In this document: positions 3,146 through 62,024 of the stretch, piece by piece | Layout: every line of letters starts with the position of its first letter | How positions within the stretch are numbered: position 1 is the stretch's first letter | Source: Terebella lapidaria | Lineage: Eukaryota > Annelida > Polychaeta > Terebellida > Terebellidae | NCBI GenBank assembly: GCA_949152475.1 | Contig: OX424564.1 | Coordinates: 11,656,001-11,720,000, forward strand | Reading direction: 5' to 3' | DNA: 64,000 bases | The notes under the pieces: model-generated | The model's database searches: none | What the model saw: only the letters and a program-made list of their open reading frames with translations | What the model was told of the DNA's origin: nothing | Made by a program: the position numbers and the translations under genes

Positions 3146-3512
3146 GGATCGATGGCATTCTGGGACTTGTCACCCTGCCATCCTCGCCCCTAAATAACCA
3201 AGGAAACAGGCGGGGAGACAATTAATTCCAGAGGGTGTGTCAAAGTTCGCAGATGCACTTTCTTTAAAGGTCTTTACCTATTTGACTCACTACCACAAGT
3301 GGTCCATAAACTTCTCGCGTGAAACTGCTACATTTGTAGTGACACGACTTCTGTTTGAAAGTTGTTTGATCGACATTCATGCTGTTTCGATTTGCTGGAG
3401 TCACTGTGAGAAAAGGGACAGCGTACATTATCGAAATGAACTAAACCCAGGTTACATATACTTACAGATTGGAATTCTTTTCCATTCATAAGCTGTAAGA
3501 AAACGGGACACT

Positions 3513-9817: not shown

Positions 9818-10442
9818 CTAGACGTCAAGGCCTAAAGATGCCTTGGAGGCATTTCGATGTTAAGACTGATTTATAATATCCAGGGCGACGAACCTGTTTC
9901 GCTGTACGACGCACCACTTCCTAGATATAGACGAAAATGAAATCCCTGACACCCTCTAGGCATCTTTGGCCAGTGCAACGAGTCCGAAAATAACGTCCGG
10001 TTTGCTCTACAATGCACCATTTCCGAGATATCGACGAAAACGAAAAATGCCGACTCGGCAAAAAATTTAGTTCAAGGTCAAAGTTCATCCAAAATACCCA
10101 ATAGATCAAGGATAATGACCAGTTTATCAGTGACACAAAATGATAATCACAGATAAAAAGAACAAAAGGTGTTAAAGGCAACAAATGGCCATCATAACCA
10201 ATTGTCATTCTGGATCTGAATAATGGGGGATCAGCTGGGAATGAAATTGCCCACTAGATTGTACATGTAAGCCAAGGTGAATTTTTGGTCAGTAGAAATT
10301 TGATAGTATTGTAATAATGGTCGTATTATCAAACAAGGTAACATCAATTTTTGATGCTTGAGTCTATATTTCGGAGGCGACAGGGATGATAGGGCTACGG
10401 GGGATACACCCCAGCGGTCGTCAGCGACCGGAGAGCGTCTAG
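9818..10442. mobile_element. Composite of two Helitron-like 3' ends facing outward
   Basis: On the minus strand, a 3' end lies at 9818: the palindrome ATGCCTCCAAGGCAT is followed by about 20 bases ending GACGTCTAG, then T. It matches the 3' end of the large element at 42081. On the plus strand a second 3' end lies at 10442: stem CGGTCG/CGACCG, then GAGAGCGTCTAG followed by T, matching copies A and B. Between them, 9880-10070 holds one diverged inverse copy of the 147-bp unit found at 39.8-42.0 kb. The two ends belong to different families, so one element probably landed in or beside the other. Confidence 0.6.
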
Positions 10443-38327: not shown

Positions 38328-39051
38328 ATGGTCTTTCACCTCAAGAGGATTGGGCCAGAGGCCAGCCGTCCTGAGAGCTCCAATATCATTTGGTAAATAT
38401 ATAAGTGTTCACTGTACAAAATATCACAAATTAAACTATAAATATACACAGATCATTGAAAAGCAAGAATAAATGAAAAATGTATTTGAATTTAGATCAG
38501 ATTTGATAAATGAATTCATACTTTGTGCATAAGGGCACAAACAGCAGTAATCATGCGAATATAGGGTTTGGGCATATATTCTATAATATTAGCATCTTCT
38601 TTACAGCTTCACGAAAAATGTGACGATCATTGGACGCAATGCGAAGCAGGCCGACTATGTGATCTGCAGCAGTGACTACGAACAGAATGCGTTCATCAGC
38701 CGTAGACACTGTCGGGTCAGGCGTCATAGCAACACCCACAAGGTCATCGATGACAGTCGTAATGGTGTCTTCATCAATGACATCAAAATCTCTGGTTTGT
38801 ATCATTCTCTCTCTAGAAAATAACCGTCTAACTTACTGTTTTCACTCTCAAGTGGGTCAAAATGTCTATGCCAGAATATTTTTTGCCTGAATATAACAAA
38901 AAAACAAGGAGTTCATTTCCTGTCATACTTGCCTTTGTTAGGTGAAGCCGAGCTGTTTGAAGGCGATACTGTGACGTTCGGACACCCCAATGGTGAAAGG
39001 CTTGTCCCTGGGACTAGAGCAAGACAACCGGACTCAGAATACCAGTTCATT
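38328..39051 (+). other. FHA domain (exons 1-3 of the giant gene)
   Basis: FHA domains bind phosphothreonine peptides. The domain starts MVFHLKRIGPEA and shows the hallmark residues in order: Gly-Arg in IIGRN, Ser-Arg-Arg-His in FISRRHC, and Asn-Gly in SRNGVFIND, then EGDTVTFG. The pattern LFEGDTVTFG followed by SEYQFI resembles the FHA domain of TCF19 more than that of MDC1, as judged from memory. The introns that split it have phases 2, 1 and 0. Confidence 0.85.
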
Positions 39052-39439
39052 GTAAGTTTGGGTCAGAGCATCGTTCACTCTGAACTACTAGTGTATGGAT
39101 GTGGTATGTATTGTGGATCTTCAGCGATAGAACGCATGCATAAAAATGTCCATTTCTGTTTGATCAAAGTGGGTGTGATCTGGTGAAAATCTGAAGCCCA
39201 TATCACAGCCCATGCTTTGGTCAAATGGCGAGGATTTAATGACAACAAAGATTTCAGCTTATTCTTTGGAAGAACTGTGTAGGTGTTGATGATTTGGCTG
39301 AGGCGGCTGTGAATTACTTGATAGCTTCAAATATTGGTATCACAGCCCGCTTTGGTCAAAACACCACACCAAGATTCATCTACCGGGATGGACCAGGAAT
39401 TAAGGCATTTCGGCAGAAATGCCTTTATGGTTTTAGCAG

Positions 39440-39480
<41 letters not shown>

Positions 39481-42400: not shown

Positions 42401-45400
42401 TTAATTCCCAGTGTCTTGCAATATCACAGTGATTTATTATCACCTACTCGATGATGTGCTGGTCGTCTGACCAGAAGTGGTTGTGATGTGTTGTTTGGTC
42501 CATATCACAGACCGCTTTGGTCAACATGATCAGCCAATTTGCAGCGTATTTTGTAGGTCAAACTTGTGCATTGAAGAACTGAACTGTGGTCAATGAAAGA
42601 ATAAAAGTATATTGTCGATAAAACTGCAAGTAGACTGCTTTCAATAAAATTTATTACTCACAACTTGCTTCGTTCTGTAGTATGGTTGAATATGTGTGCT
42701 ATGGATTTGCGAGTGCCTCGCTGCGTTGATGTTGTATTCCAAATTGTCTCCTATAGGTTACATTTGAAGTTTCTGACTGTTCTTACCTACATTATATCAA
42801 GCTTTATTTATCCAAACATCTCGACACTCCTCTTGGCAACAGTTAGTCTGTACTTATGTACCAGTATCTTAAACACCGAATGTAGATGAAATTGTCTTTT
42901 AAAGCTTGTGACATGAATCATTGAGGGTTCACCTGCTTGCTGCCAGCAACCAGTGCATTCAATATCAAGATAAAAGCTAAATATTTAAATGTAAGGAACA
43001 AAGCACGAGTTGTAGTACATGTGGTGAGGCCACATCAATCAAAAATGACGGTTTATAATCTTTCTGGCCTTGAAAATTTTTGAATTTTTAAAAAATGAAT
43101 CTCGATAGAACAGTCCATAAACGTGATTTTGGAAAAGACTAGGAAAAGTGCACTTGAAAAAAAAAAGTTAATTTATCACACATAAGATCGTATGTAAAAT
43201 CCTACAGCTTTGGGAACACAGAATTTGGCTAAATTAATTAATGAACCAACTATACTGCTTGGTGTTGCCTCCAGAAATGAATAAGTAAATGTGATTAGGG
43301 GTAGTAATTAGCATCTCAAGATGTACATCTTGTACTGGTAGGTGGAGAGATGTACCTGTGGGCAAGCCTCTGGTTCCATCACCACGCCAACAAGACAGCC
43401 ACTGGATGTTGTAGCTCATAGCAACTTGATGCCACCTCCGTCCACACCCGTGGTACCAGCATCCCGAAATCTACAAAGTCCAGCACAGGGGAAAGAACAC
43501 CCGAGAACTTGCAACGTTATCAGGGAAAATGCAAGGAATTCAATGTTGTCAGCTTGCGCATCACCTGGTGGTAAAGTGGCAGAGGTTTCTCGAGTTGAGG
43601 GGAGTTCTGAGAGGCTCGGAGAACAAATTAAGACTGATACTCCTGAAAGCAGTGCCAGGTCAAACAAGTTGCGCCTTGGTAGAGCGAGCGACAGGCCACT
43701 GGAAGGACCTGAAGATGGTCCAGCTGCATGTGATGTATCTGGACCAATCTATGAAGACAAGGAACCATCAGTGTCTGAGGAGAGTGTGTCGAGTCAAGCC
43801 AATTCTGAAGTAATGAGTGAAGCTCAGCAGCAGGTGCTTGCTGAAGCAAAGAGACGTATGACTGAAACTTCCAGTGATGTCTCAAATACAATAACACCTG
43901 CCAAATCTGTCACAAAAAAGACATGTGCACCCAAAACAGAACAGCATGTGACACCAGCGAAAGACCCAATGTCTTCACCGAATGAAATGGTCCCTGATTG
44001 TGAGAAGCAAGGGCATGAAATAGAAGCTAATCAGTTAACTAATGAACCGACATTGAGTGATTCAGAAGTTGCACGAACAACATCTACACAAGAAGTCAAA
44101 CTTTCATCAATTGATTCAGAATTTGAACAAAAGCCAACTGATTCTGGAGATAAACAGATGTCAACTGAACCAGAATTAGCTGAGAAGCAAAGTGAACAGG
44201 GAGTTGCACAAGCATCAACAAAACCAGAAGATGAACAGAAAGCAACTCAACCAGAAAAGTTGACCGAACCAGAAATTGTACAGATGTCGACAGAACCAGA
44301 CGTTAAACCGATATCGACTGAACAAGAAGTTAAACGAAAGTCAACAGAACCAGAAGTAGAACCGAAAATAATTGAGGTTAAACAGTTGTCCACTGAACCC
44401 GAAGTTGAACAAACGGCAACAGAGCCAGAAATTCAAAAACCGCCAGCTGAACAAGAAGTTAAACAGACAACTGGAGCAGAAAAGTTGACTGAACCAGAAG
44501 TTGTACAAATGTCGACAGAAGTTGAACAGATATCGACTGAACAAGAAGTTAAACAAGAGTTAACTGAACCAAAAGTTAAACTGACACCAATTGAGGTTAA
44601 ACATTCACCAACTGAAGTTGAACAGATGTCAACCGAATCAGATGTTGAACAGACGCCAACTGAACCCGAAGTTGAACAAACGTCAACTGAACCAGAAGTT
44701 GAACAGACACCAACTGAACCAGAAGTTGAACAGACGTCAACTGAACCTGAAGTTAAACAGACAGCAACAGAACCGGAAGTTGAACAGACACCAACTGGAC
44801 CAGAAGTTGAAAAGACGGCAACTGAACCTGAACTTGAACAGATGTCAACCGAATCAGATGTTGAACAGACGCCAACTGAACCCGAAGTTGAACAGACGTC
44901 AACTGAACCTGAAGTTAAAGAGACGGCAACAGAACCGGAAGTTGAACAGACACCAACTGAACCAGAAGTTGAACAGACGGCAACAGAACCAGAAGTTGAA
45001 CAGACACCAACTGAACCTGAAGTTGAACAGACGGCAACAGAACCGAAAGTTGAACAGACACCAACTGAACCGGAAGTTGAACAGACACCAACTGAACCAG
45101 AAGTTGAACAGATGTCAACAGAACTAGAAGTTGAACAGAAGGCAACAGAACCGAAAGTTGAACAGATGTCATCAGAACTAGAAGTTGAACCGTCGAAAAC
45201 TGAACCAGAAGTTGAACTTACGCCAACTAAAGCAGATGTTGTACAGATGCAAACTGAATCAGAAATTGAGCATATTCAAACTGAACCAATTGTTGAACAA
45301 GCGTCAACCACACCAGAAGTTGAACAAATGTCGACAGAACCAGATGCTGAAGAGATATCGACTGAACAAGAATTTAAACAGAAGTCAACTGAACCAATAG

Positions 45401-48400
45401 TTGAACAGTCACCAACTGGACCACATGTTGAGCAAATGCCAACAGAACCAGAAATTCAAGAAACGCCTGCTGAAAACGAAGTTGAACAGACACCAACTGA
45501 ACCCGAAGTTGAACAGACGGCAACAGAACCGAAAGTTGAACAGACACCAACTGAACCGGAAGTTGAACAGACGCCAACTGAACCCGACGTTAAACAGATG
45601 TCAACAGAACCCGAAGTTGAACAGATGTCAACTGGACACAAAGTGGAACAGACGGCAACTGAAACAAAAGTTGTGCGGACGGCAACAGAGCCAGAAATTC
45701 AAACGACACCAATGGAAGCAGAAGTTGTGCAGATGTTGACGGAACCAGTTGTTGACGGAACCAGTTGTTGAACAAATATCAGCTGAAGCAACAGTTGAAC
45801 AGATGTCCACTGAGCCCAAACGTGAACAGTCGCCAACTGAACCACAAGTTGAACAGACAGCAACTGAACCGGAAGTTGTACAGACAGTAATACAACCAGA
45901 ACTTCAAAAGACGCCAAGTGAAGCAGAAGTTGAACAAATGCTAACTGAACCAGAAATGAACCAGACATTGACTGAACCAGACGTTGTACAGATGTTGACA
46001 GAACCAAAGGTTGAACAGATGTCCACCAAACCAGAAGTTGAACAGAGACCAACTGAACCTGAAGTTGAACAGGCGCCAAGTGAAGTTGAACAGATGTCAT
46101 CAGAACCAGAAGTTGAACAGTGGCCAACTGAACCAGAAGTTGAACAGACGCCAACTGAACCAATAGATCAGTCGCCAACTGAATCAAAAGTTGTACAGAC
46201 AGCAACAGGAGGACCAGAACTTCAAAGGACGCCAAGTGAACCACAAGTTGAACAAACGCTAACTGAACCAGAAGTTGAACAGATGGCAACAGAACCAGAA
46301 GTTGAACAGATGTGGACAGAACCAGAAGTTGAACGGACGCCAACTGAACCAGAATTTGAACAGACGTCAACTGAACCAGAAGTTGAACAGACGTCAACTG
46401 AACCAGAAGTTGAACAGATGTCAACTGTACCAGAAGTTGAACAGACGGCAACAGAACCGGAAGTTGAACAGACGCCAACTGAACCAGAAGTTGAACAGAT
46501 GCCAACTGAACCAGAAGTTGAACAGATGCCAACTGAACCAGAAGTTGAACAGATGCCAACTGAACCAGAAGTTGAACAGACGCCAACTGAACTAGAAATT
46601 GAACAGTCGCCAACTGAACCAGAAGTTGAACAGACATCAACTGAACCAGAAGTTGAACAGCAGTCAACTGTACCAGAAGTTGGACAGATAGCAACAGAAC
46701 CGGAAGTTGAACAGACGGCAACTGAACCAGTAGTTGAACAGATGCCAACTGAACCAGAAGTTGAACAGACACCAACTGAACTAGAAGTTGAACAGACGCC
46801 AACTGAATCAGAAATTGAACAGTCGCCAACTGAACCAGAAGTTGAACAGACGTCAACTGAACCAAAAGTTGAACAGACGTCTACTGAACCAGAAGTTGAA
46901 CAGACGGCAACAGAACCGGAAGTTGAACAGACGCCAACTGAACCAGAAGTTGAACAGATGCCAACTGAACCAGAAGTTGAACAGATGCCAACCGAACCTG
47001 AAGGTAAACAGACAGCAACAGAACCTGAAGTTGAACAGACACCAACTGAACCAGAAGTTGAAAAGACGGCAACTGAACCTGAAGTTGAACAGATGTCCAC
47101 CGAATCAGATGTTGAACAGACGCCAACTGAACCTGAAGCTAAACAGACAGCAACAGAACCAGAAGTTGAACAGATTTTACCTGATCCAGAAGTTGAACCA
47201 GTGTCAACAGAACCAGAAGTTAAACAGATACCAACTGAACCAGAAGTTGAACTGATGTCAACTGAACCAGAAACTGCAATCGATAGAGAAACGCAGCCGA
47301 GGTCATCTGAACAAGTTGATGCATTAGAAGTGCAAAAATTACAGGGTGAAGATGTTGAGGATGTGACTCAACCATATATACAAAGTGAATCAACAACAGC
47401 TGAAGGAGAGAAGGGAGTAAGTGAATGTCTATGTCAAGAAGCTGTACAAATAACTGAACCTGAAGAATTAGAAGCAATAGAAGTTGATGTACCAATGCAA
47501 ATTGAGCCTGAGCTGCTGTCCTCAACAGTTGACAGAGAAGAACGGCTGACTTGTGACAAGCAAGAGGAAGTAAGAGAAAAATTTATATAGCCCGGTCAAA
47601 AATAATATTTTATGATTAATTGCTAAATAGCTTCCAGATTTTGTTATGTGTATAATTGCATATTTGACGCTGTTCTTCGTTTCGTATCACGAGTGAAAAA
47701 AAAAACCCAAAACATACAAGTGATTTTAGATCATTGTTACATTTAAGTGTCCTAGAAAAAGGCCTAAATTAACTCATGTATGTTTCTGTCATTATCAGGT
47801 GACCTCGAGTTCATCCAAAAGCCGGGCCCTTGAGAAATATGCCAGCTCCATCATTGTACCCGCCACCTGTGATACCGCTGCCTGTGATCAAACGGGTAAG
47901 GAGAATTCTTCTGTTCCTTATCCTAACCCTGGTGCTAATGACTGTGATAGAGAAGTAGAGACGACTGTGGACGATTGCCTGCTGGTCGGGGCAGGTAGTT
48001 CTCGAGGGCCTGTCGGAGTAGAGAGTGAAGAACGTGTACAACTCACTGATTTAGACGATTTGTGCAATGTTGGAAAAGGTCCTTCATCTGAAGTTCATCA
48101 CCCACAACAAGGTTTGGCTGTTGGAAGTGCAGAAGTACGGACTTCAAAGATACTCACTCCCAAAGTGGACAGAACAGATCCATCTGTTGATGAAGTGGAC
48201 AGAACAGATCCAGCTGTTGATGAAGTGGACAGAATAGATCCAGCTGTTGATGAAGTGAACAGAACAGATCCAGCTGTTGATGAAATGGACAGAACAGATC
48301 CAGCTGTTGATGAAATGGACAGAACAGATCCAGCTGTTGATGAAGTGGACAGAACAGATCCAGCTGTTGATGAAGTGGACAGAACAGATCCAGCTTTTGA

Positions 48401-51400
48401 TGAAGTGGACAGAACAGATCCAGCTGTTGATGAAGTGAACAGAACAGATCCAGCTGGTGGTCAAGTGGACAGAACAGATCCAGCTCTTGATCAAGTGGAC
48501 AGAACAGATCCAGCTGTTGATGAAGTGGACAGAACAGATCCAGCTGTTGATGAAATGGACAGAACAGATCCAGCTCTTGATGAAGTGAACAGAACAGATC
48601 CAGCTGTTGATGAAATGGACAGAACAGATCCAGCTCTTGATGAAGTGGACAGAACAGATCCAGCTGTTGATGAAATGGACAGAACAGATCCAGCTCTTGA
48701 TGAAGTGGACAGAACAGATCCATCTGTTGATCAAGTGAACAAAACAGATCCAGCTCTTGATCAAGTGGACAGAACAGATCCAGCTGTTGATGAAATGGAC
48801 AGAACAGATCCAGCTGTTGATGAAGTGGACAGAACAGATCCAGCTGTTGATGAAATGGACAGAACAGATCCAGCTGTTGATGAAATGGACAGAACAGATC
48901 CAGGTCTTGATCAAGTGAACAGAACAGATCCAGTTCTTGATCAAGTGAACAGAACAGATCCAGCTGTTGATGAAGAGGACAAAACAGATCCAGCTGTTGA
49001 TGAAGTGAACAGAACAGATCCAGCTGTTGATGAAGAGGACCAGACAGATCCAGCTGTTGATACAGTGGACCGAACAGATCAGACTGTTGCTGGAGTACCC
49101 AAAGTGTCCATTGAAAAACCAGATGAAGAGTTGGCCAGAGTTGGTCCAGTTGATTCTGTTACAGAGCCACATGATAGCACAATATTGGTCGAAGATGAAC
49201 CAACAACTCCCCAGTGCAGTCAGCTCCAGCCTTCGTCTTTGGAGAGGAGTCCTGAGAAAGTTCATGCCATGTCTCTGTCACCATCTGTGAATGAGAAGCT
49301 ACGTAAAATGCAAGAACAAGGAGCGAGTACACTGCCGGAAAAGTTGACAACTACTCCAGAATATTTACCAACTCAACAAGTCCAGTCTGCCAAAGAAACA
49401 GAAAATACCGGTACCACAGAAGTGAATAAGTTGGCGATGAAATCGCTAGAGAGTGTACCTGTAAAGAAGCTTGCCCCAAGTGATGTCAAACCTGCTGTGA
49501 AAGCCGAGATCCCCACAAACTTTCAGGGTGAGGCTTGTCCTGGTGTTCCTAATGTGTGCAAAACTTGCAAAACCGAGATGGCCGACACCCCAAAAGGCCA
49601 GAAGAGGTCACGGCACAACTCCGCTGAACTGCCAAGCAAGAAGGTTTGTCTGGATATCTCACTTTCTCTCGGGTCCATCAGAAGTCCCGGCATTCGGCCT
49701 CGGCTTGCGTTCCCTGTCAGTCCAGCTCCAACTATCAGTCTGGTACATCAGCTGATCAATGAACCAGAACCTGTGATAGATGTAGAGGAACATCAGTTCA
49801 GCGATGCCGATTCAGACGAGGAACTGACGTTGAGAATGTCTCACTCAATTCACGTGAAGAAAGAACTTAGTGAGACCACCCAGGCATGTCCAAGTAGTGA
49901 TTCTAACAGTGGACGAAAGAGGAAAAGGAGTGATGAGGAGCAAGTTCTCAGCAAAAAGCAAATAGTTGATGCATGCGTTCAGACAATATCTGACGACTTA
50001 CCAGAATCAGAAAATAAATGCAAGGCCGAGACTCGACCTACAGTCCAACCTCAAATGCCTACATCGCTTGCAATTGAAGTTCCACCTGAAACACAGATGC
50101 CAGCAGCTCGGCCTGAAGTAGCAGCAAGACCAAATGTGCAATCACCGATCCAATTGACGCCTAAAGTACACACACCAAGCAACACGAAACATCACATTGA
50201 TCCTGATATGAAAGGTTCAGATGAACCTGATCCTGATATGAAAGGTTCGAATGAAACAACGACAGGAGCTGGACGAACACAGTCCGAAATGCAGGTATCA
50301 AGTGAAGACGAAGCTGGATCTGATGTACAACTACAACCTGACATTCCAGCTTCATCAGACAATGACACTGAACAGGAGGCTACTACTGATGTGCAAGGTC
50401 CTGCAAAAACACAGACACCGTGCAAGTCTGAAGCTGAGAATGAGCTGAGCAATTCCGCTGTGTGTTACAAACCATCAGTCCAGGGTCAACCACGTAGTGA
50501 CATACCAGCACAGCCTCGAATACAAGTTCAGATTTACGATGTACAGCTCATGACATCAGGAGCACAGGCAGTGCCATCGAAAGTATCGCAAGAGGATGTA
50601 CAAGCACGATCTGAACTCCTTCATGTCCCCGCCGTACAAGAAGTCCCAAAGCACCTTGAGAACATGTCAAGTCATGCATCAAGGCTGGATTCCGATGTGG
50701 AATCACTGCATCTCGTCTTTGATGCGTCACAAGAGGACACCACCGAATTGGCCCCGTCCCATCGCCTGCAAGAAGTGGACGTTGAGAGCCAGGATGGTAG
50801 TGATGAGGAGTTGATGGAAGGTATATCTTGGCTTCCTGACTCGCAGCACGACACAAATGATCCTGGAGTTGAGATGCCCAATGTCTCAATTCCCAAAGAT
50901 GACTTGAATGCCACCACAGAGGCAGTGGCACAACTAAACAGCAGCACTGACAGTGTCCATTGTTTGGATTGTGGAGAAGATGTACCAGTCGAGGAAAAGG
51001 AAAACCACATTCACCCCGATGAGGACTTCGTGGAGTATGTCGACTCTGTTCCAAGTGATGTAGTTGATGTATCCAAGGCAGTGGACCACTTGGAGTCAAT
51101 TACAATGCCAAAGGATTCTTCTTCGCCACGTTCGCCGTCATCAAGTCGTGGTATTGTGTCATCTGAAACAGATGTACATGTAGATGTCACAAAACAATGT
51201 GAATCTGCATTAACAGAGCCTGAAGAAAGTAAGCTGGATGATACCGCTATCAGGACAGAAACTAAGAATGAACAGCCCTCTGGTCTGTCAGACGATGGAA
51301 ACAAAATCACTGCACAGAAAACAATTGATGAAAAGCTTCCTTCACGATCTGCTGATGAAGTGGATGAAACCCCAATCGAAGGAGAAAAGTCTGCATCACC

Positions 51401-54400
51401 ACAAAGAAATGTTGAAAGAAACCATGCGAAGAACATGGATTCTCCACCAGTGGATCTACAGACAAGACCTGCTACCACTGGAGTCCAGGACCCTGAACAA
51501 ATTCTCTGTGAAACAGGTGACGGTGTTAAGCCAGAAATGTCAGAAGGCTCGATGCCAGAAGCTATGCATTGTGCAGATGGAGAAGAAGAACAAACAAGCA
51601 TCTCTCAGACATCGGTTCCTGACAGCCAACAGTTGCAGGCTCAGAACAAAGCAGACCTTGCCACAGACACACTTTGCAGTACACAGGATGTCCTCTCGCA
51701 AACCTCGACCACGGATGGCTTGGATTTGTACCTGGAGCCCACACAGAAGTGCCTCAGCAGAAGTGACAGTGATGCATGTCAGCTCTCCCAGGAGTCTACT
51801 CCTGAGGACATGATTCTCCACATAGAGGCGACACAAGTACAAGACACTGGCGAGTTGGCATGTGGGGAGTCCACAGGACAGTCACAGGAATCCGTAGATG
51901 TTGGTTTGTTCGTGGAACCAACACAGAACTCCGAAGACATGAATGAAGCCAATGTTGATAAATTTGGGAAGGTGGGGAAAGATACAGACACCTGCGAGAT
52001 GGCGTATGAAGAGTCAATCGACCAATCTCAGGAGTCTGCCGATGTTGGTTTGTATTTGGAACCTACACAGAATTCAGATGACATGAGTGAGGCCAATGTT
52101 GATAGATCTAAGGTGATGAAAGGTATGGACACCCCCATCTCTGAGGAAGAAGATGATGAAAATACTGCACCCCAAAGCGACGTGCTTGATTCTGATGAAA
52201 AAGAAGATATCTCGGGAGCAGAGCTAGTGTGTGAACCTGTGCATGTTTCTCCAGAAGTCGACGACCACACTCCCAGTCAAGATGAGCCTCCACCGGAAGT
52301 TGGTGGAGCTACTGCAAACACACGGGAATGTGTGTCTGTGGAGCCACTGAATCCAGCTCCACCACAACATGGGCTTCAGATTTCCACTTCAGTAGCCGAA
52401 GGAGCTAGTTCTCACGATCAGACAACTGGAGACATCAAGTCATCGCTACCAGAGCAATCACAGCTGTCAAGTGATGAAAATATCGACCTTTTCTTGGCTC
52501 CAACACAGTCAGCACAAACGGCAGAAGAATCTTTTGTGTCACAATCAGCTGAAATAGCCACTGACGAGTCAGAAAGTGCTAAACAGCAATCAACGAAATG
52601 TCTAACGTCTGATGTTGAAGTTGAACACTTAGCAAAGTCAGAGCTGTGCAGAGCTGACTCCAGTGCACTGGTGACAGTTTCTGGAGATACTGGTGGTGAG
52701 GTTGATCCTTCTCAGTCGTCAACAGATACAAGCTTGTGTCTGTACATGGAGCCCACTCAAATCAGCAAGGTCAATAACAGCGAAAGTGATGAAAAACGTG
52801 TAGGTGACGAGTCGGATGTTTCTTTGACACCTACACAAACACGCGACGAATCTTGTGGCCATGATGACACGGTCGAGTCCATAGTGTTTCCAGCTAGTCA
52901 ACTGAGTAAATCAGCCAGAAATACAAGTGAGGCGACAGTTGAAAACAGTAGCATGCAGAAGATAGCTGTTGCGGAATGTGAGTTTTCACAGATGTCTGAG
53001 GAAGAAGATGGTCAATCAGGGAATATCCAGGCAATAATTGACACGTTGGAAAATGAATTTTATCAGCCACCAGCTACTGGCAAGAGTCAAGCTACAAAAG
53101 ACTCAATATGCCATGACGAGGCTGGGGATTCAAGCAGTCTAGAAGTTTTGGATGATTCCCCAGAAGTAGAAGCAGGTAATGAATCAACTGATGATCATAA
53201 TGAATCCACTGACCTTGATAAAACTTTAGAAGCCAACGGAAATCCATGCTCAAAGATGGGATTTGTTGCGGATTGTGTGGAATCAGAGTCGGACGATGAT
53301 CAATTGTCACAGGTGATCCCACATCTCACAGAGTCTCACTGGATAAAACCACAGGGAGGCAGCAAGGACATGCTGGACGATGACACGATCATCATTGAGG
53401 ATGGTGATTGCCCTACAGATACACTGAGTGATGTCAGTCCAAGTGCCAAGATCTGGACTAAAAGTGTCATGGCCAATAAGCCAAATAGCTGGGAATCTGA
53501 TGATACTGATGTCGACATGGGCCATAAACGTGTGAGCAATGAGAGAAACAGACGCCTGTCAAGACAGCCGAGTGATGATGAATCAGCGGCTACTGACACA
53601 GAAGTCCTGCTTGTTCCCAAACTGAAACGTGTTGCTGAGATCACGGCCGATTCGAGTTTTGGCTCCGGGGAAACCGACACAGACAATTTGCCGAGCCCGA
53701 AGACTGCGCCAGCAAGAGATGAAGCAGGATGGGAATCGCAGGAGACCGACACTGATGATGTCCCTCTGAGGTCTGATGAAATCAGTCTCAAAAGTAATGC
53801 AGAGTACGCTGGTGGAGACGGTGATCGGAAAGTCCTGAAGAGACGCAGAAGTCCCACCCCAAAGAAGCAACGTTGCCATGGTGATCAAATAAACGTGACC
53901 CCACAGAGTCCTGGCAAAAAAACAAAACGATGCCTGAGTCTTAGCAAAAGACGCCGTGTCACTGTCGAGATGTCACAGAGCATCGAAGAGACCTCCAACG
54001 AGTCTGTACCAGACAGCCCTCGTGACGTATCTGATAGTGAGGAAGACAAAGGTCTCGGTAGGAATGTAGTAAGTTAGCACCCTGTTTACTGCACACAATC
54101 CCGCATGGTTCCTGCACCTCTCTTTCACTCATCTTTAGTTAAGGCTCTTTGACTTGCAGGGCAGGTGGTGCATGGTAAGTTTAGATTATATTTTAATATT
54201 ATATTCCAGTGCAACACTGGATTTGACGAGAAATGCAATGTTAACTGGTTGGGAAAAAAAAAATAACTGCATGGTTAATAAGTCAATGCATCAATAACAC
54301 ACAATGACAGCAAGGATCACAACTTCTAATAATGTACACTTGTAACAGTCTAGGATTTCAAGTAAGGGGCATATTTTGTGACGAATGAAAGCATTGTTTA

Positions 54401-57400
54401 ACATTGTTTAAACATTGAATAAATATTTGCTAATCTGTAACTATATATGTATATATATGTGGAAGATGTCTTGGCATTCAAGAAATTTGATGTACTCGTA
54501 GTATAATTTAGATTCATTTGCTGAATTGCAGGTGCCACTGAGCCAGGAATCATTGCGTCAGCATCACCGGAATACGAGCCGAATGAGTATGAGCCAGTAG
54601 TGAGATCTCAGTCCCCGGAGTATGAACCTGTAGATACTGCATGCCCAACAACGGAAATTCTCAACAGCAATTCTGTCAATAGCGAGGACAGTAAAAATTC
54701 CTATGTAAATAGTTCTCAGTCGGTGGATATCAGTGATGACGAAAAATCCAAACATTCCTCTGAATCATCGTCCGTGGACGATTCATCGTCCGAGGATGAT
54801 CAGGAGCATCTCGACGTAGACGAAGAGTCTGCATGCGAAGGATATTCATCTTCAGATCGTGAGGTTTGTGCCGATGATTTTGACGATGATGATGACGAAT
54901 ATTCTCTGCCAGATATCGACCATATAATCAGAAGTGTAGGGAACACATCTGATGAAGATGACGATGATTCTCATGATAAGGATGAGTCACTCGATACCAA
55001 TAATCTGAGTGATACAGACAAATGCACTGAACAACCCAAAGAAGATGAACTTGACTTGAGGAAATCCAGTGCAGTGTTGCAAATTGAGACTCAAAGAGAT
55101 ACCAAGAAAGCAATCGAGTCGGTGCCTGGGGATGATGGTACAAGTCCAGATTTCATGGAGAGTGGAACTCTGGATTTCGACAGCGACTATGACAACAGCT
55201 CCCAAGACAACAAAGATGGTGACAGTCGTGGAAGTGATCCCGACATTTTCTCAGGCTGTGAGGGGCCCAACACCTCAATACAAGCTGCGAGTCCTGACTG
55301 CCCAAGGATCGTGGGTGCCTCTTTGGGAGATGAATCCAGTTACTTCAGAGAGACGGCCGAAGACTTTGATGACCTCCCAGGCAGGTTCCCCTAATCTACG
55401 AAATAGTTTCATTCTACAGTGAACACAATTCTATGAAGTATATCTGACATGAATAACTTAAGTCATTCAGTATAGTCAATGGATTCACGTTTTATTTGCA
55501 GGTTGCTCTCAGGCCCCAGAACGGAAGGCATCTGTTAGCTCCATCCTGGCCAAGATCCGAGCAAAAAGACGTAAGACCCAGGAGACTCTTCTGACACCAA
55601 AAACTGAATCAGAGCCACAAGACGTCAGTGCCCACAGCTCGCAGGAGACGCCAGGTGGCATCACGGGTGAAGGGAGTGTCACGAGACGTTCTCTGATTCC
55701 GTATGAAAGTGACATCATAGCAGCCGATAATCATGCTAGAAAGTGAGTATACGAAATGATATTCAGATCGGTGCAAATATGATTTCTCTGTCAAACTCAA
55801 TCTAATAAACTGAAAATATCTTAATATTTCCCTTCGAAAAGAAGAAATAAATGTGGAATGTTTTCGTCAACTCAGGTCCAATTCTATACTGCGACAACTG
55901 ACGGCAACATTGTGCAGCCAGCCACAATTGAATGTTCACGCAAGAGTCCAGGCTTGGCAGTGAGTGTAAAGCTTCTCGGTCATCTAATGAGTTGCCGACT
56001 ACCTTTCTAACTAACATTAAGTGCAAACTAGAGTTGATTTCAAAGTTTTTCTATTGTGAATGAATGTTAGATCAAAAATATTCTACGATGTAACAGAGCA
56101 GAGGTGGAGAGTCTGCGAGAGAAGCTGCTAATGCCGCAGACGATTATAGCGGTGGTCGGTGACACAGGAGCGGGTAAGTCCAGTCTGATGAATGCGCTCC
56201 TCGATCATGCGGACATCCTCCCCACATCCGGCATGCGAGCATGTACAGCCGTCGTCGTGGAGATCACAAACAACCGTGTCAACAAAAACTACGAGGCCGA
56301 CATAGAGTTCCTGACTGAAAAGGTAACATATTGTAGGGCTCATGGATTGTAGATGTGAGTCTATGACTGTATGCTCTGACACAAATGAAGCTTTGTTTGA
56401 GTCATCTAGGATACATGTATGTGATGTGAACTGTCCGTGATCTCATTTTGTTTTCGCTCACAAGGAGTGGATTGATGAGCTGGATCTGCTGCTGACAGAG
56501 CTGAAGGGTCACGATGGGCAGGTCAAGGCGTACCAACCTGACCCCAAGTCTGAGGCTGGGGTCGCCTGGAGTAAGATCCGGGCTGTCTACGGAGTCTTCA
56601 AGGACGGTGTCACCCAGCAACAGTTGTCCCGACAGAACAGGACTGTCACACGCTGGCTTAGCAAAGTCAAACATATCAGTGTCACATCGGTAAGTTAGAT
56701 CATGTTCTCTACATGCCGGTTTCTTGGATTTTAAATGTTTTGCAGGTTGAAAGCCGACTGTGAGTCAGTGCTGTAGGCTTCCTGCCAAGCAAATGACCTA
56801 TATCCAGTGATTTAGCTGAACATCTCCTATGGTGCAAACTTAATCTTGTATCTCCACAGCCAAAGAGGTTTAGGCAAGAAATAGACCGGTACATAGAGTC
56901 TACAGACATGGGAACCGGCGGGGATTTCTGGCCTATTGTGAAGCATGTCAAGATCCGTATCCCCAAGTGTGAGGTCTGTCGTAGTGGAGCCACTCTGGTG
57001 GACCTGCCGGGAATCCGGGACTCCAACGCTGCTCGAGACAAAATTGCTAAAGATGTATGTTCCTGTCACAATTTCACAAATATTTTATCATATATGATAT
57101 CAGTCACTTCACGAAGAGCTTCAACTTTCAGTTTCTGAAGAACTGTACAGCGGTGTGGGTCGCCGCCAGTATTCACCGAGCTGTGGATGATAAAACTGCC
57201 AAGGACCTACTTGGTGAACACTTCCGCAGGCAGCTTCTGATGGACGGCCAATACGGCAGCATCTCCTTTGTCTGCACCAAAACAGATGTCCTTGTGCCAT
57301 CAGAGATCATCCAGTACGTAAAATTACACTTGTTCATGAGATCACATTGTTCAGTCATGATATTCCTTCATGGTGACGAGTTCTGTTCTTGACAATGCAT

Positions 57401-60400
57401 TTCAAAACTATGTTTGTCCCATATAGTAATTATTTCCATTGAAATACAGCTATGTACCATTTGTTCATCTAGCGGCCTGCGTCTGGGCCCGGAGGTCGAG
57501 CCTCTAGAGGCAGAGATCGCTGACCTCGAGATGGAAGATCTCCAGGCTAAGAAGGAGATGGACGAGATTGCGACGGAGATCACTGAACTTGAAGAGGCCA
57601 TGGAGGAAATGGAGGAGACTCTCACACAGCCGATAGAGGTTGGTGTCATTAACACTGTGGTGGGATTAGTTAGTTATGAATAGTTGCCTAGCTTCGAATA
57701 ACGGGTATTTGTTGAGTCAACGTGAGAGGAAAAAATGAGGCACGGTGCATATTCGAATGATCTCGAATTTTACTTCGAGATCAACGATGACCACGAGGAC
57801 TCATTAGCTGAAGACAGACAGGCTCTGACGGATGTACGCGGCAGAATCAAGGATCTCCGCAGAGCACAAACAGAACTCAACGAAAAGGTTGGCTTCTCAT
57901 TTGTTTGCATTTTGCCATACAACAGTAACAAGTTGATTTCTGGAACTGAATACAGTATCACAAAATGGCAAAACAATATGTTTGATATTGAAGACATTTT
58001 CAATCAGTTTGTAACTGTACCTTTCAGTCTGTCCAACTGATTGCTAAGATTGAACTCAAGACAAAGGATATCACTGCTGTGTGCGCCAATGCACGTAATG
58101 AATACTCCAAGACGCAACTTCGAAGAGATTTCAGAGCAGGGCTAAGAGTAAGTTAATATTGAATCCATCATCAAAAATGCTCTACTGTCAAACCTTTAAA
58201 CTTTAAACTAAAGAGAATCTTGTGTCAGTTGCAATAGAATTGTTCAATAATTGATATGGAACTTGTATGACAGTTTTATGCACCACACTATGCTGACAGG
58301 AGATGAAACGCCAGGCTGGAGTCCTCTCTGAGGAGGAACTCGAGGAGGAGGACTTTGACGATTTGCAGGAGGAGGATGACGATATTGCACAGACCGTGGA
58401 AAACCTGCAAGTTTTCTGTGTCAGTGCCCTTGAGTATCTGAAACTCAAGAAAAAACTCCCGAAACAGGACGGCTCCCCGCAGGTTTGCAATGCTTCTCAA
58501 TAATAACATTCTGAATCTATAGGACACTAGTATCTATTTCGAAGTATGAATGATTTTATGGATCTGTTTATGAATCTTTACTTCTCTAAATATCACTTCA
58601 TTGTGATCACCAGGTTTTCAGTGACATAAAAGACACAGGCATCCCCTGTCTGAAAGAGTTTGTTGATGAACTGACTCGCAGACGAAGGGTGGAAGGTACC
58701 AAGCGTCTTACTCGCTGTATTGGACAGACCGTTGTGGACATTCTCAACTATCTGACTGATGAGGGAACCAAGGTAATGTATACGTGTCTGTTGATTTTGT
58801 ACTACAAAATACACAACATGAATAGTTGACACATTTGTTGATAGGGTGCTTGTTGTCAATTTGAACCCTAAACATTCTGCAAAACAGGACCATTCGATGC
58901 GAGGGAATGCCAAATCCATTTTCATCCAACTCCTTGAGTCGCTGAAAGTGGAGCAGATTGGTGCAATCATTCAAGATGCCTCTACAAGGATTGACACTCT
59001 TTTCAACACAAGTTTGAAACCGAAAGCAACGGAGGGTGCTCAGAATGCAGTCATTTCTGCTGTGGACACTTCCAACAAATGGGGCTCAAAGGTAGTGTTA
59101 AAAATTCCTATACTTTCAATCAGGTGTTGCAAATTGTAATTGACGCTGTGTTAATAACATTTATTTTGCCTATAAAAGGTCAACAAAGAGACGCCGAGTG
59201 CCGGTGGATTGTATTGGGCAACATACAAGGCTACAGTCAGACGTGAGGGGGTCTATAAATCACCCAAGATGGGCCCCATTGATTTCAATGAAGATCTCGC
59301 TGGTCCGATGTATGCTTCTATCACCATCGTGTGGGATCGGGTTTTCAAGTATGTATAAATGAGACGTAGAGATTGCATCAATAGTATCTCATGCAAACAC
59401 TCAACAATCATCAGATACTGTAAACCCCTTTAATTTCGCGGCCGTTTTATTTCGCGTTTTCATGATTTGGACATATTCGCGGCCGTTTAATTTCGCGTTT
59501 TCTGTAACATGCATATTACTGGTAACGCATTACAGAGGTCATTACCAATGACATACTCACTATGCAACCCAACAATTGGTAAAAATACTGACATGGACAC
59601 AATTGTATCTTTATTATACCTATTTTACCTTTATTTCCTGGCTTAGTAAACATGAATTGAATACAAACAGTCACAGTACAATATTACCTACATACAGTAA
59701 ACTTGGATTTGGCTACTGGTTTTGTTATGTTAAATGTACAACATTATTTGTTCTTCTGTTCCATACCACACACATTGCAGTCAATTTCCGAATCAACAGC
59801 AGATTCAACCACATTAACCATGCTCATTATTAAATATATTCGCAAATCAAAATGCGGTTGACCAAAAAAATTTGCGCCCAGAATTAATGGCCGCGAAAAA
59901 TTAAGGGGTTTACAGTATGCACAGTTGAATCTCATTCGTTTGACTTCGCACTCCTCTTTCAGCTCGTACTTGAACAACATCCTGGAGACGGCGAAGCGAG
60001 CGCTGATCCTGGCTCTGCAGAGATTTGGTTCTGAGATGGAAGGTCGTCTGACATTTCTCGGTGTGAATGCGGACCGAGTGACCCGTGTCCGCCAGCAGCA
60101 GATTGTCAGCGCCACCAACAAGGTACAATATGAACTCTACCAATGAAAGCATTTTATCCTTTAAAGATGGGTTGCACCTTTTAAAAACAGAAAAAAGGAA
60201 TGCTGATTATCCACAGAAGCATTCTGATACCTTGTCGTTGACTTTGCAGCTGACTGACACGATACAAACCTTGCGCCAGTACATCACTGATCAGCAGCGC
60301 GAGGTTAGCCGAGTCATCACTCCTACTGTCCAGGTTTGTATCTGGAACAATTGTCTGAATGGATATGGCTCTACATGTCTTGCATCACATGCTGCTCAGG

Positions 60401-62024
60401 AATATACTTGGCTACACTTTACTTAGTTTTTCGAGAGGTGTTGGGTACAGCAACAAAACAAGAGTTGTCTGTGTGCTTGACAAACAGCTCATTATTTGTC
60501 TCCCCTGTGCAGGACAAGATGAGGTCGGTATATGAACTGTGTGCTATGGAATCCGGTCCTGGGACATTCAACCGTATGAAGATCCTCATGGCGAATCATG
60601 TCAACAGTCAGAAGACCGTGATCTTTGATTCAGCATCAACACAACTCCTCAGTAAACTCCTGGAGCTACAGGTTTGTAGAAATGTTTTCAACGGTACATA
60701 GATAGTCTGTGATGGCAGTTTCTATATAAAAACTTTGCTCAGTAAGTACCATCATTTCAAGTGTTTGTTCAAATACAATGTTGAACAGAATGAGGTGGTG
60801 ACTCACTTGCAAACTGTCTGCGACCGAGTTTTGGAAGACCTTGCTGCCCTCTATGAACCACTTTGGGAGGCTCCGAACAACACCCAAATCCTGCGGAGTA
60901 GCTACCTGAAAGGTTTATCTCAAATGAACCAGAGTTTCTGTACAGTGTAAATGTGGTTGCTGGTTGCCTTCTCTCCCTGTCAAGCTGAATAATGTTTCTT
61001 CATGTTGATTTACAGATATCATGGATGCGAGTAGTCAAGTAGCTGAGCTGTACAGAGAGCTTGAACTGGAGCACCATCCAGAGTATGCAACATTATCCTC
61101 TCCAAGACTTCCTCCCCCTGAAGACGGCGCTGCAACCACAGGTCCCAAAGTCGCTTGCATGGCCCCAACAGTGGGGATGGTAGCCCCTCAACCAGGGTCG
61201 TCTCAGGGAGTCTTGCAATTTCCACATCAGGTCGTGAAGGAAGAGGTGATTTATAGCAAAGCAACAAAACCGCACTCAAGGAGCTTATTGGTTTCGGGAA
61301 TTCCACCGAAAAAACTGAAAAGTGAAACACATACTGCACCGGTTTCCCTCGCTGGAATGCCGCATGGTTCCGAACAGGCTTCAGATCGAAAACCACTGAG
61401 TGAGTTGCTCGTTACGTCGAGATCAAACCAGAGTTCTTTGAGGGATTCAAAAAAGCCAACTGTTGTTATGCACAATGGGATTCCTGTTGTGTTGATGGAT
61501 GCTTCTGGTAAATTAGCCAGTCTACAGTCTATACCTGGAGTCTCAATACCAAGTGTGCCAAATGTGACACAGTCCACGCTACCACAAAGCAGCAGTCGCA
61601 AATCTGCCGCTGTTGCTCAGCCAAGTACCCATTTGGCGCAACTTTCCGGTGCAATCGCCCAGAAGGTTGTCCAGCAGTCGCAGGGATCTGGTCGACCATG
61701 TAACCAGAAACCCGGAACCAGCGCCGGACGGAAAGGGGGACCTCGTCTCAAGATGCAGCATCGCCCAATGACCTTGGTCAAGACGGAACCAAAATCACCA
61801 GACAAGAAGAGGAAGAAACCTGCTACTTGTGAGTAAATTACTTGGGGAGCTAAAGCTAAAATACGAGCAAAACTCAATTTGATATCGCTCATGAATTTGT
61901 GTGTAAATTGTTTATATTTGAATCTCACTCCTCAGATAATGACGTGGTTGATCTGGTGACTTCTTCAAGCGATGACAACTCTTCAGATGATATTCCAACG
62001 CTGAAGAAATACAGAAGGAAATGA
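38328..62024 (+). CDS. Giant FHA / acidic-repeat / SLIP-GC-type GTPase protein
   Basis: Twenty-four coding exons: 38328-38392, 38607-38794, 38942-39051, 43342-47569, 47799-54057, 54532-55380, 55502-55742, 56097-56322, 56465-56689, 56860-57054, 57132-57313, 57473-57638, 57780-57887, 58028-58147, 58300-58482, 58614-58772, 58888-59091, 59179-59348, 59963-60122, 60250-60333, 60513-60671, 60789-60912, 61016-61828, 61936-62024. Phases match at every junction; the 57780 acceptor is least certain. The product is about 5,096 aa if one 16-bp duplication in exon 4 is disregarded. Order: FHA domain (1-121, with IIGRN, ISRRHC and DDSRNGVFIND), 9-residue repeats (to about 1,490), 10-residue repeats, PTQ and SDTD-like motifs, basic nuclear signals, acidic exon 6, then a dynamin-like GTPase (about 3,976-4,755) with GDTGAGKSS, DLPG and TKTD, coiled coils and GTFNRMK, then a tail with a SUMO-interaction motif. 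The GTPase part has about the length of human SLIP-GC (NUGGC), which is known to limit AID-related DNA damage. A DNA-damage scaffold role is inferred. Confidence 0.82.
39384..42081 (+). mobile_element. Helitron-like element with internal satellite in intron 3
   Basis: The 3' end is the palindrome ATGCCTCCAAGGCAT, then CTTTAGGCCTTGACGTCTAG at 42081 followed by T; an inverse copy of this end lies at 9818. Near the 5' end at about 39394-39418 is a hairpin AAGGCATTTC-GGCA-GAAATGCCTT followed by a run of about 40 T. The exact 5' boundary is uncertain. Two diverged units with GGTTTCCGGACGATAACT (39500-39670 and 39960) precede the satellite. No protein is encoded. Confidence 0.65.
39800..42016. repeat. 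147-bp satellite, 14 units
   Basis: The anchor CGTCGTAGAGCG occurs at 39841, 40155, 40302, 40449, 40596, 40741, 40888, 41035, 41182, 41329, 41476, 41623, 41744 and 41891. Nine or more of the intervals are exactly 147 bp, one is 145 and one is 121. The central units differ by only a few bases (CGATATC versus CGTTATC, TATGGATGAAC versus TATTGATGAAC), showing recent homogenisation. Each unit contains TTTGACCTTGACCCGAAA and GCCGAGTCGGCA, a 12-bp palindrome. Confidence 0.92.
44030..47275 (+). repeat. 27-bp coding minisatellite (TEPEVEQTP units) in exon 4
   Basis: Roughly 110-120 units of 27 bp, consensus GAACCAGAAGTTGAACAG plus nine variable bases, encode TEPEVEQTP-like nonapeptides. The invariant core is TEPEVEQ; the two residues after Q vary among TP, MS, TA, TS and MP. 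T-x-x-E (TEPE) fits the CK2 consensus, so the whole region could be heavily phosphorylated, although this is inference. The middle (46360-46600) is nearly identical unit to unit while the ends are diverged. Confidence 0.9.
45739..45770 (+). repeat. 16-bp tandem duplication that shifts the frame in exon 4
   Basis: ACGGAACCAGTTGTTG occurs twice in direct succession (45739-45754 and 45755-45770). It is not a multiple of three or of the 27-bp unit. The frame upstream runs into TGA at 45769-45771, whereas the frame downstream is open to the splice donor at 47570. With one copy, the two frames are continuous. It is either a loss-of-function allele or an assembly error in repeated DNA. Confidence 0.85.
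48164..49093 (+). repeat. 30-bp coding minisatellite, 31 units, in exon 5
   Basis: Thirty-one consecutive units of 30 bp encode VDRTDPAVDE with substitutions at positions 1 (V, M, E), 2 (D, N), 8 (V, L, G) and 10 (E, Q). The third-codon and second-codon differences are interspersed, which suggests partial homogenisation. It is unrelated in sequence to the 27-bp repeat of exon 4. Confidence 0.92.
51711..52852 (+). other. Cluster of EPTQ-type motifs in the giant protein
   Basis: Seven copies of a short motif are spread over about 380 residues: LDLYLEPTQ, LHIEATQ, VGLFVEPTQ, VGLYLEPTQ, IDLFLAPTQ, LCLYMEPTQ and VSLTPTQ. TQ is the consensus target of ATM/ATR kinases, and in MDC1 phosphorylated TQ motifs are bound by the FHA domain of RNF8. 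Adjacent QSQES and LSQES words add SQ sites. The function here is inferred by analogy. Confidence 0.7.
53485..55025 (+). other. SDTD-like acidic motifs and nuclear localisation signals
   Basis: The motifs are ESDDTDVD, SAATDTEV, GETDTDN and QETDTDD (53485-53765), and LSDTDK in exon 6. CK2-phosphorylated SDTD motifs in MDC1 recruit the MRN complex through NBS1. Basic clusters KRRRSPTPKKQR, KKTKR and SKRRR at 53830-53960 are probable nuclear localisation signals; GRKRKR at about 49912 is another. Confidence 0.65.
56097..60912 (+). other. SLIP-GC (NUGGC) type GTPase module
   Basis: Dynamin-superfamily signatures: G1 GDTGAGKSS, G2 Thr in ACTAVV, G3 DLPG, G4 TKTD. A charged coiled coil (exon 12, EITELEEAMEEMEE) follows, then a stalk-like helical region with NKWGSK, GGLYWATYKATVRR and GTFNRMK, which recur in SLIP-GC-like proteins as far as I recall. 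The length of about 780 residues is close to human NUGGC (796 aa). The module lacks its own start codon with a normal leader: its first exon is in phase only with the exon upstream. Confidence 0.8.
59418..59915. mobile_element. TA-duplicating MITE in intron 18
   Basis: The ends are inverted: CTGTAAACCCCTTTAATTTCG on the left and CTGTAAACCCCTTAATTTTTCG (minus strand) on the right, with TA at both flanks (59416-59417 and 59916-59917). GGCCG-T-TTAATTTCGCG words recur near the left end. The TACTGTAA type of end with TA flanks is typical of Tc1/mariner-like miniature elements. It is non-coding. Confidence 0.75.

What the first reader, a model, noticed from the sequence alone, without database searches (positions are those of the whole stretch)
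38328..62024. One gene joins an MDC1-like phosphopeptide scaffold to a SLIP-GC-type GTPase
Seen: FHA exons, repeat exons, TQ/SDTD-rich exons and GTPase exons lie on one strand with compatible phases at every junction. The GTPase's first exon has no good start codon of its own and fits the upstream exon in phase 2 (residues ...DNHARK then AEVESLREK...). Known: MDC1 has FHA, TQ and SDTD motifs and long repeats but ends in BRCT domains; SLIP-GC is a nuclear GTPase linked to limiting DNA damage by AID. Inference: the fusion ties a SLIP-GC-type GTPase physically to the DNA-damage response, a Rosetta-stone hint for the function of the poorly understood NUGGC family.
Basis: partly seen in the sequence, partly recalled or inferred. 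Interest (0 to 1): 0.92.

Follow-up and report, generated by a model that had tools for sequence, protein, structure and literature searches.

The report
FHA scaffold fused to nuclear GTPase
One very large animal gene appears to join a phosphate-reading FHA domain and a long phosphorylatable tail to a SLIP-GC-type GTPase; if transcripts confirm it, a little-understood nuclear GTPase would sit in the same protein as parts typical of DNA-damage signalling.

Summary
The parts are real. The + strand carries an FHA domain (Pfam 2e-14), about 3,860 residues of repeats and disordered sequence with an S/TQ-rich part, then a dynamin-type GTPase (Dynamin_N 7.3e-17, DUF7605 8.7e-19) with G1, G3 and G4 motifs. 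One gene is favoured: exon 8 is coding, has no in-frame ATG, and ends at the best-scoring GT donor of the model in the phase the GTPase needs. "Compatible phases at every junction" is overstated. A 16-bp tandem duplication shifts the frame in the repeat exon (stop 45769-45771). Exon 7-8 needs a GC-AG intron or weak donors. Two AATAAA lie in intron 8. "MDC1-like" is analogy only: no BRCT in the parts scanned, 0 of 25 TQ are TQxF, one exact SDTD, and no MDC1 chain among 14 PDB matches of the FHA. A possible missed exon lies at 55876-55959. Conservation could not be tested: no eukaryotic genomes were available. Best reading: a phospho-regulated FHA-S/TQ scaffold tethering a SLIP-GC-type GTPase, a new architecture pending cDNA.

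The parts
38328..38392 (+). Exon 1, ATG in AAAAATGG context, start of FHA region
   Evidence: donor TTG|GTAAAT
38607..38794 (+). Exon 2, FHA core with IIGRN (38626), SRRHC (38698), NGVFIN (38761)
   Evidence: Pfam FHA 5.7e-11 for the ORF 38593-38823; residues
38942..39051 (+). Exon 3, end of FHA
   Evidence: spliced exons 1-3 match FHA profile 1-67 of 67, 2e-14
43342..47569 (+). Exon 4/5: low-complexity exon with 9-aa repeat TEPEVEQTP (27-bp unit, 98 copies by TRF); frame broken at 45771
45730..45771 (+). 16-bp tandem duplication that shifts the frame; TGA at 45769-45771
47799..54036 (+). Exon 6 (end 54036 or 54057): 10-aa repeat VDRTDPAVDE (48163-49096, 31 copies by TRF), TQ cluster, TDTD-like cluster, basic NLS-like runs
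51738..52838 (+). Cluster of seven hydrophobic-x-[PA]-T-Q motifs
   Evidence: 6 by regex against 0.2 expected, 0 of 500 shuffles (pattern chosen after seeing the sequence; the seventh, MEPTQ, added by eye); coordinates
53502..53756 (+). Acidic DDTD / TDTE / ETDTD / ETDTD cluster (CK2-like, recalled)
54532..55380 (+). Exon 7: acidic/Ser-rich, the one exact SDTD (55008-55019); GC donor CAG|GCAGGT
55502..55742 (+). Exon 8: bridge exon, no in-frame ATG; donor AAA|GTGAGT phase 2
55804..55851 (+). Two AATAAA hexamers (55804, 55846) in the intron between exons 8 and 9
   Evidence: counter-evidence
55876..55959 (+). Candidate missed exon (84 nt, phase 2 in and out), adds SNSILRQLTATLCSQPQLNVHARVQAWQ before AEVESLREK
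   Evidence: on the best path of a crude exon-chaining script; acceptor 4.3, donor 2.0; coding score weak (0.09) and lower than another open frame (0.20)
56097..56322 (+). Exon 9: GTPase G1 GDTGAGKSS (56158-56184), G2 region ACTAVV (56239)
56465..57313 (+). Exons 10-12: G3 DLPG (57001), G4 TKTD (57276)
   Evidence: Dynamin_N 7.3e-17 on the spliced protein
57473..60912 (+). Exons 13-23: coiled-coil-like stretch (by eye) and C-terminal region with DUF7605
   Evidence: DUF7605 8.7e-19; phases
61016..62024 (+). Exons 24-25: Ser/Pro/Lys-rich tail, VKTEPKSP (61777), KKRKK (61804), VVDLVTSSSDD (61944), stop at 62022-62024

Best explanation
The window holds one large animal gene (about 5,000 codons in the model) whose product is an N-terminal FHA domain, a very long disordered acidic scaffold with an S/TQ-rich part, and a C-terminal SLIP-GC-type dynamin-like GTPase with a nuclear-type tail. 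Most likely mechanism (inferred): ATM/ATR-type kinases phosphorylate the PTQ cluster and CK2 the TDTD-like cluster. The FHA domain binds such phosphothreonines in the same or a neighbouring molecule or in a partner, which concentrates the GTPase at a nuclear site, where GTP-driven self-assembly of the dynamin-like part builds or dissolves a higher-order assembly. Shown here: domains, motifs, frames, candidate splice sites. Inferred: one transcript, phosphorylation, FHA ligand, nuclear site, assembly.
For: FHA profile covered in full after splicing exons 1-3, with the recalled phosphate-binding positions present. Dynamin_N 7.3e-17 and DUF7605 8.7e-19; G1, G3, G4 present. Exons 7 and 8 are coding in the predicted frame (0.27/0.48 and 0.43/0.42 bits/codon with two training sets) while introns 6, 7 and 8 are negative in all six frames. 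No ATG in exon 8 in frame nor in the exon 9 frame upstream of its acceptor; exon 7 has one, at 55155. The exon 8 donor scores best of the GT donors in the 23 junctions (5.1; next 4.9). One gene beats the best two-gene path by 1.6-5.6 bits over nine settings and beats two paths with a placed break by 3.6-8.4 bits over two settings, before any penalty for a gene break. In exon 6 after the repeats: PTQ-type 6 against 0.2 expected, [DE]TD 7 against 2.4.
Against: Frameshift in exon 4/5 as sequenced. Exon 7/8 needs a GC donor or weaker GT donors: forbidding GC costs the one-gene path 8.4-11.4 bits (two-gene paths, which also use that GC donor, were not run without it). Two AATAAA in the 354-base intron 8 against two in roughly 3,900 bases of the other introns counted (intron 3, not counted, has two more). 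The exon 9 acceptor scores 1.1, sixth lowest of 23. The exon-chaining script is crude: on the GTPase control it recovered 11-25 of 30 splice sites and added 4-13 others, by intron cost, and it also adds a 15-base exon (54160-54174) that I did not adopt. A test for one amphipathic helix across exon 8/9, joined without the candidate exon, failed (8125 of 10000 shuffles as high). TQ and SQ are depleted, not enriched, in exon 4/5 (4 against 18.3, 1 against 9.5). No homologue could be compared.
Confidence: 0.6

Rival explanations
1. Two neighbouring genes: an FHA/repeat scaffold that ends at exon 6 (stop 54075-54077), exon 7 (stop 55392-55394) or exon 8 (stop 55744-55746, inside intron 8), and a SLIP-GC-type gene whose first exon lies in the same stretch.
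For: AATAAA at 54418, 55804 and 55846; out-of-phase GT donors at 54069 and 55385; an ATG at 56131 just before the G1 strand (its context, C at -3 and C at +4, is weak) and one at 55155 in exon 7.
Against: Exons 7 and 8 are coding in the frame that leads into the GTPase; no in-frame ATG in exon 8; two-gene paths score lower, though on a crude script; starting at 56131 would remove everything before the first strand of the G domain.
Confidence: 0.22
2. One locus with two products: the full fusion and a shorter scaffold made by intronic polyadenylation in intron 8, or a GTPase-only form from an internal promoter.
For: Good in-phase splice out of exon 8 together with two AATAAA in the same intron.
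Against: No transcript data; hexamers also occur by chance in A/T-rich introns.
Confidence: 0.12
3. The fusion is a decayed or mis-assembled locus: the frameshift in the repeat exon is a real lesion, so only an FHA plus part of the repeats is made.
For: 16-bp tandem duplication and TGA at 45769-45771, no good bypass among the introns examined.
Against: More than 2,000 codons of exon 6 and the GTPase exons stay open and the unique part of exon 6 is codon-biased (its 0.49 is with its own training set, 0.27 with the GTPase set), which does not look like a dead gene; repeat arrays are common sites of assembly error or polymorphism.
Confidence: 0.06

Closest known systems
SLIP-GC / NUGGC nuclear GTPase (Richter et al. 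2009 and 2012, J Biol Chem; seen only as reference-list entries)
   Same: Dynamin-type G domain and DUF7605-type region (that NUGGC carries DUF7605 is recalled)
   Different: FHA domain and nearly four thousand mostly disordered residues in front; tail with SUMO-like motifs (whether NUGGC has such a tail was not tested)
MDC1
   Same: N-terminal FHA, TQ cluster, acidic Thr sites, long repeats
   Different: No BRCT found, no TQxF, repeats different and acidic, FHA not like that of MDC1 in the tests made
TCF19 and NBS1 FHA domains
   Different: No PHD finger or BRCT found here; recalled letters, so a lead only
DUN1 FHA (PDB 2jqj)
   Same: Best PDB sequence match of the FHA (E 0.0018)
   Different: Kinase, not a GTPase

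Membership tests
MDC1 | N-terminal FHA domain | tested here: met
   Pfam FHA 2e-14
MDC1 | C-terminal tandem BRCT (reported for all 119 metazoan MDC1 surveyed, PMC11014961 passages) | tested here: not met
   No BRCT hit in spliced exons 8-25 (E up to 1), in the exon 4/5, 6 and 7 ORFs (E up to 0.1) or in the two downstream ORFs scanned; the model stops at 62024. Intron 3 and other ORFs downstream were not scanned
MDC1 | TQxF motifs | tested here: not met
   0 of 25 TQ in the model
MDC1 | SDTD repeats (vertebrates; reported absent from invertebrate MDC1) | tested here: inconclusive
   One exact SDTD and four related acidic sites
MDC1 | FHA of the MDC1 type | tested here: inconclusive
SLIP-GC / NUGGC-type GTPase | Dynamin-type G domain with GxxxxGKS, DxxG, TKxD | tested here: met
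   Dynamin_N 7.3e-17; motifs
SLIP-GC / NUGGC-type GTPase | DUF7605-type domain (link to NUGGC recalled) | tested here: met
   DUF7605 8.7e-19, profile 3-181 of 183
SLIP-GC / NUGGC-type GTPase | Orthology to vertebrate NUGGC | not testable with these tools
   No eukaryotic protein or genome collection; prokaryote and viral scans confirmed no relative
SLIP-GC / NUGGC-type GTPase | Nuclear localisation | not testable with these tools
   Only basic runs that could be NLS
TCF19 | PHD finger with the FHA | tested here: not met
   No PHD hit in the scanned parts

The most novel reading that the evidence does not exclude
A PIKK-regulated GTPase scaffold: a single protein in which FHA recognition of ATM/ATR-phosphorylated PTQ sites drives self-association, and the tethered SLIP-GC-type GTPase remodels that assembly at damaged or foreign DNA, exposing the ancestral partnership of the NUGGC family.
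Probability: 0.25. Interest if true: 0.85.

Novelty: new variant of a known kind. Interest (0 to 1): 0.6.

Why it matters
What SLIP-GC GTPases bind in the nucleus is, as far as I know, open, and no paper in the held library has both SLIP-GC and FHA in its text (0 papers; subscription journals are mostly not held). A natural fusion names testable partners: a phosphothreonine reader and an S/TQ cluster. Of 62 papers that name NUGGC or SLIP-GC, the 40 listed look by title mostly like expression or association studies, so a concrete experiment for the family would be useful.

Tried and rejected
Rejected: MDC1 membership (no BRCT found, no TQxF). Rejected: a bypass intron around the frameshift (385 in-phase pairs in the stretch examined, best -3.8). 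Failed: a helical-continuity test as support for exon 8/9. Weak: synonymous-change tests on the repeats. The 27-bp array (72 units) is ambiguous between + frame 0 (0.34 synonymous) and one minus frame (0.38), and the 30-bp array (30 units) has 0 synonymous of 42 codon differences in frame, as in a recent expansion. Weak: the SIM count in the tail (1 against 0.3 expected, 143 of 500 shuffles); PsiKxE in the tail stands out (3 against 0.4, 1 of 500 shuffles), one of 63 motif-by-region tests. The region counts leave out the first 122 residues of exon 6 and the FHA part; its motif lists cover the whole model except that the TQ list starts at exon 6. No Rfam match at gathering scores and no tRNA by ARAGORN in the window. 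GTPase against the PDB: 19 sequences up to E 10, almost all ABC transporters (best 0.074), and Slr0869, recalled as a bacterial dynamin-like protein, at 0.15. Searches for relatives in prokaryotic and viral contigs used six short peptide patterns each and confirmed none. Paper searches for SLIP-GC with FHA (0 papers), dynamin with FHA fusion (2 papers, not relevant by listing) and DUF7605 (0 papers) gave nothing. Structure prediction was not used: a spliced protein is not letter-for-letter in the window DNA.

The 5,104-residue model used for motif counts joins the two frames of exon 4/5 and so reads about ten residues around 45740-45771 twice; protein positions are model positions. Splice scores use a generic consensus matrix from memory. 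The first run of the GTPase join had exon 14 off by one base; one search corrects it.
Full report
What is there. The + strand from 38328 to 62024 carries coding exons that can be chained into one gene. Exons 1-3 give a complete FHA domain: the ORF holding exon 2 alone scores 5.7e-11, and the spliced exons 2e-14 over profile positions 1-67 of 67. The residues usually needed for phosphothreonine binding (recalled: R, SxxH, N) are in place. Exon 4/5 is a long low-complexity exon with about 98 copies of a 27-base unit (TEPEVEQTP). Exon 6 has about 31 copies of a 30-base unit (VDRTDPAVDE) and then 1,644 residues with 13 TQ (7.5 expected), 21 SQ (12.8 expected) and seven hydrophobic-x-[PA]-T-Q motifs within 365 residues, followed by a DDTD/TDTE/ETDTD/ETDTD cluster. 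In exon 4/5, by contrast, TQ and SQ are rarer than expected (4 against 18.3 and 1 against 9.5). Exon 7 is acidic, exon 8 a bridge. Exons 9-23 encode a dynamin-type GTPase (Dynamin_N 7.3e-17; DUF7605 8.7e-19), and exons 24-25 a tail with VKTEPKSP, KKRKK and VVDLVTSSSDD.

One gene or two. For: exon 8 scores 0.43 bits/codon in the frame that enters the GTPase, against at most 0.311 for the 508 open frames found among 5000 background segments, while introns 6-8 score below zero in all six frames. Exon 8 has no in-frame ATG, and exon 7 has one, at 55155. The exon 8 donor scores highest of the GT donors in the 23 junctions. A simple exon-chaining script prefers one gene by 1.6-5.6 bits when the break may fall anywhere and by 3.6-8.4 bits for two placed breaks. 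Against: the script is crude on its control (11-25 of 30 sites found, 4-13 extra sites), the exon 9 acceptor is below the median (1.1 against 2.4), exon 7/8 needs a GC donor (CAG|GCAGGT) or weaker GT donors, and intron 8 holds two AATAAA. I put the one-gene model, including the versions with a shorter isoform or a damaged repeat exon, at about 0.75.

The frame is not open throughout: a 16-bp tandem duplication at 45730-45771 creates TGA at 45769-45771, and no plausible intron was found to avoid it in the stretch examined. This may be an allele, an assembly error or a lesion. A further exon, 55876-55959, deserves a test: it has a fair acceptor and donor (4.3 and 2.0), keeps phase 2, and would supply residues before the first G-domain strand. 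Its coding score is weak (0.09), another open frame of the same stretch scores higher (0.20), and a resemblance of its W-containing segment to the stretch before G1 in fungal relatives is recalled only.

MDC1 or not. In the survey read in passages (PMC11014961) all 119 metazoan MDC1 proteins analysed had an N-terminal FHA and a C-terminal tandem BRCT, and invertebrate ones had only TQxF repeats. Here no BRCT was found in the parts scanned and 0 of 25 TQ are TQxF. The FHA finds DUN1 first in the PDB and no MDC1 chain among 14 matches up to E 10. So it may work like an MDC1-type scaffold but is not an MDC1.

Mechanism. The anatomy suggests a phospho-regulated nuclear scaffold that carries its own GTPase: kinase sites in the middle, a phosphothreonine reader at the front, a self-assembling GTPase at the back. 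Only the anatomy is shown. SLIP-GC's co-expression with AID in germinal-centre B cells was seen in passages of later papers (PMC10912573; PMC9654647); the original papers are not held, and their further findings on DNA damage are recalled.

Limits. No eukaryotic genome or protein collection was available and the species is unknown. Conservation of the fusion, the strongest test, could not be made.

Noticed in passing
window 45730-45771: 16-bp tandem duplication inside the 27-bp repeat exon shifts the reading frame.
   Followed up: yes
window 40138-41988: 147-bp tandem array (about 10 copies) in intron 3; a minus-strand ORF at 9921-10253 shares its translated motif FLPSRHFSFSSISRK, so the repeat is found elsewhere in the window too.
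   Followed up: partly
window 3492-4130 and 7404: Possible homeobox gene fragments: an EH1-like FLSISDIL motif (name recalled) and a homeodomain recognition helix ([10 protein letters not shown]). The first ORF has no Pfam hit; the second was not scanned.
   Followed up: partly
window 28311-32086, minus strand: Long ORFs (661, 126 and 292 aa) with no Pfam family above its cut-off; perhaps a lineage-specific or mobile gene.
   Followed up: partly
window 61777-61976: Tail with VKTEPKSP (recalled as a phosphorylation-dependent sumoylation pattern) and VVDLVTSSSDD (SUMO-interaction-like, recalled); PsiKxE is more frequent in the tail than in shuffles.
   Followed up: partly
window 56746-56759: Possible 14-nt microexon with fair splice sites between exons 10 and 11, out of phase with the acceptor used; the chaining script picked it in all four control runs.
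   Followed up: partly
window 54160-54174: Possible 15-nt in-phase microexon between exons 6 and 7, on the best one-gene path of the script.
   Followed up: no
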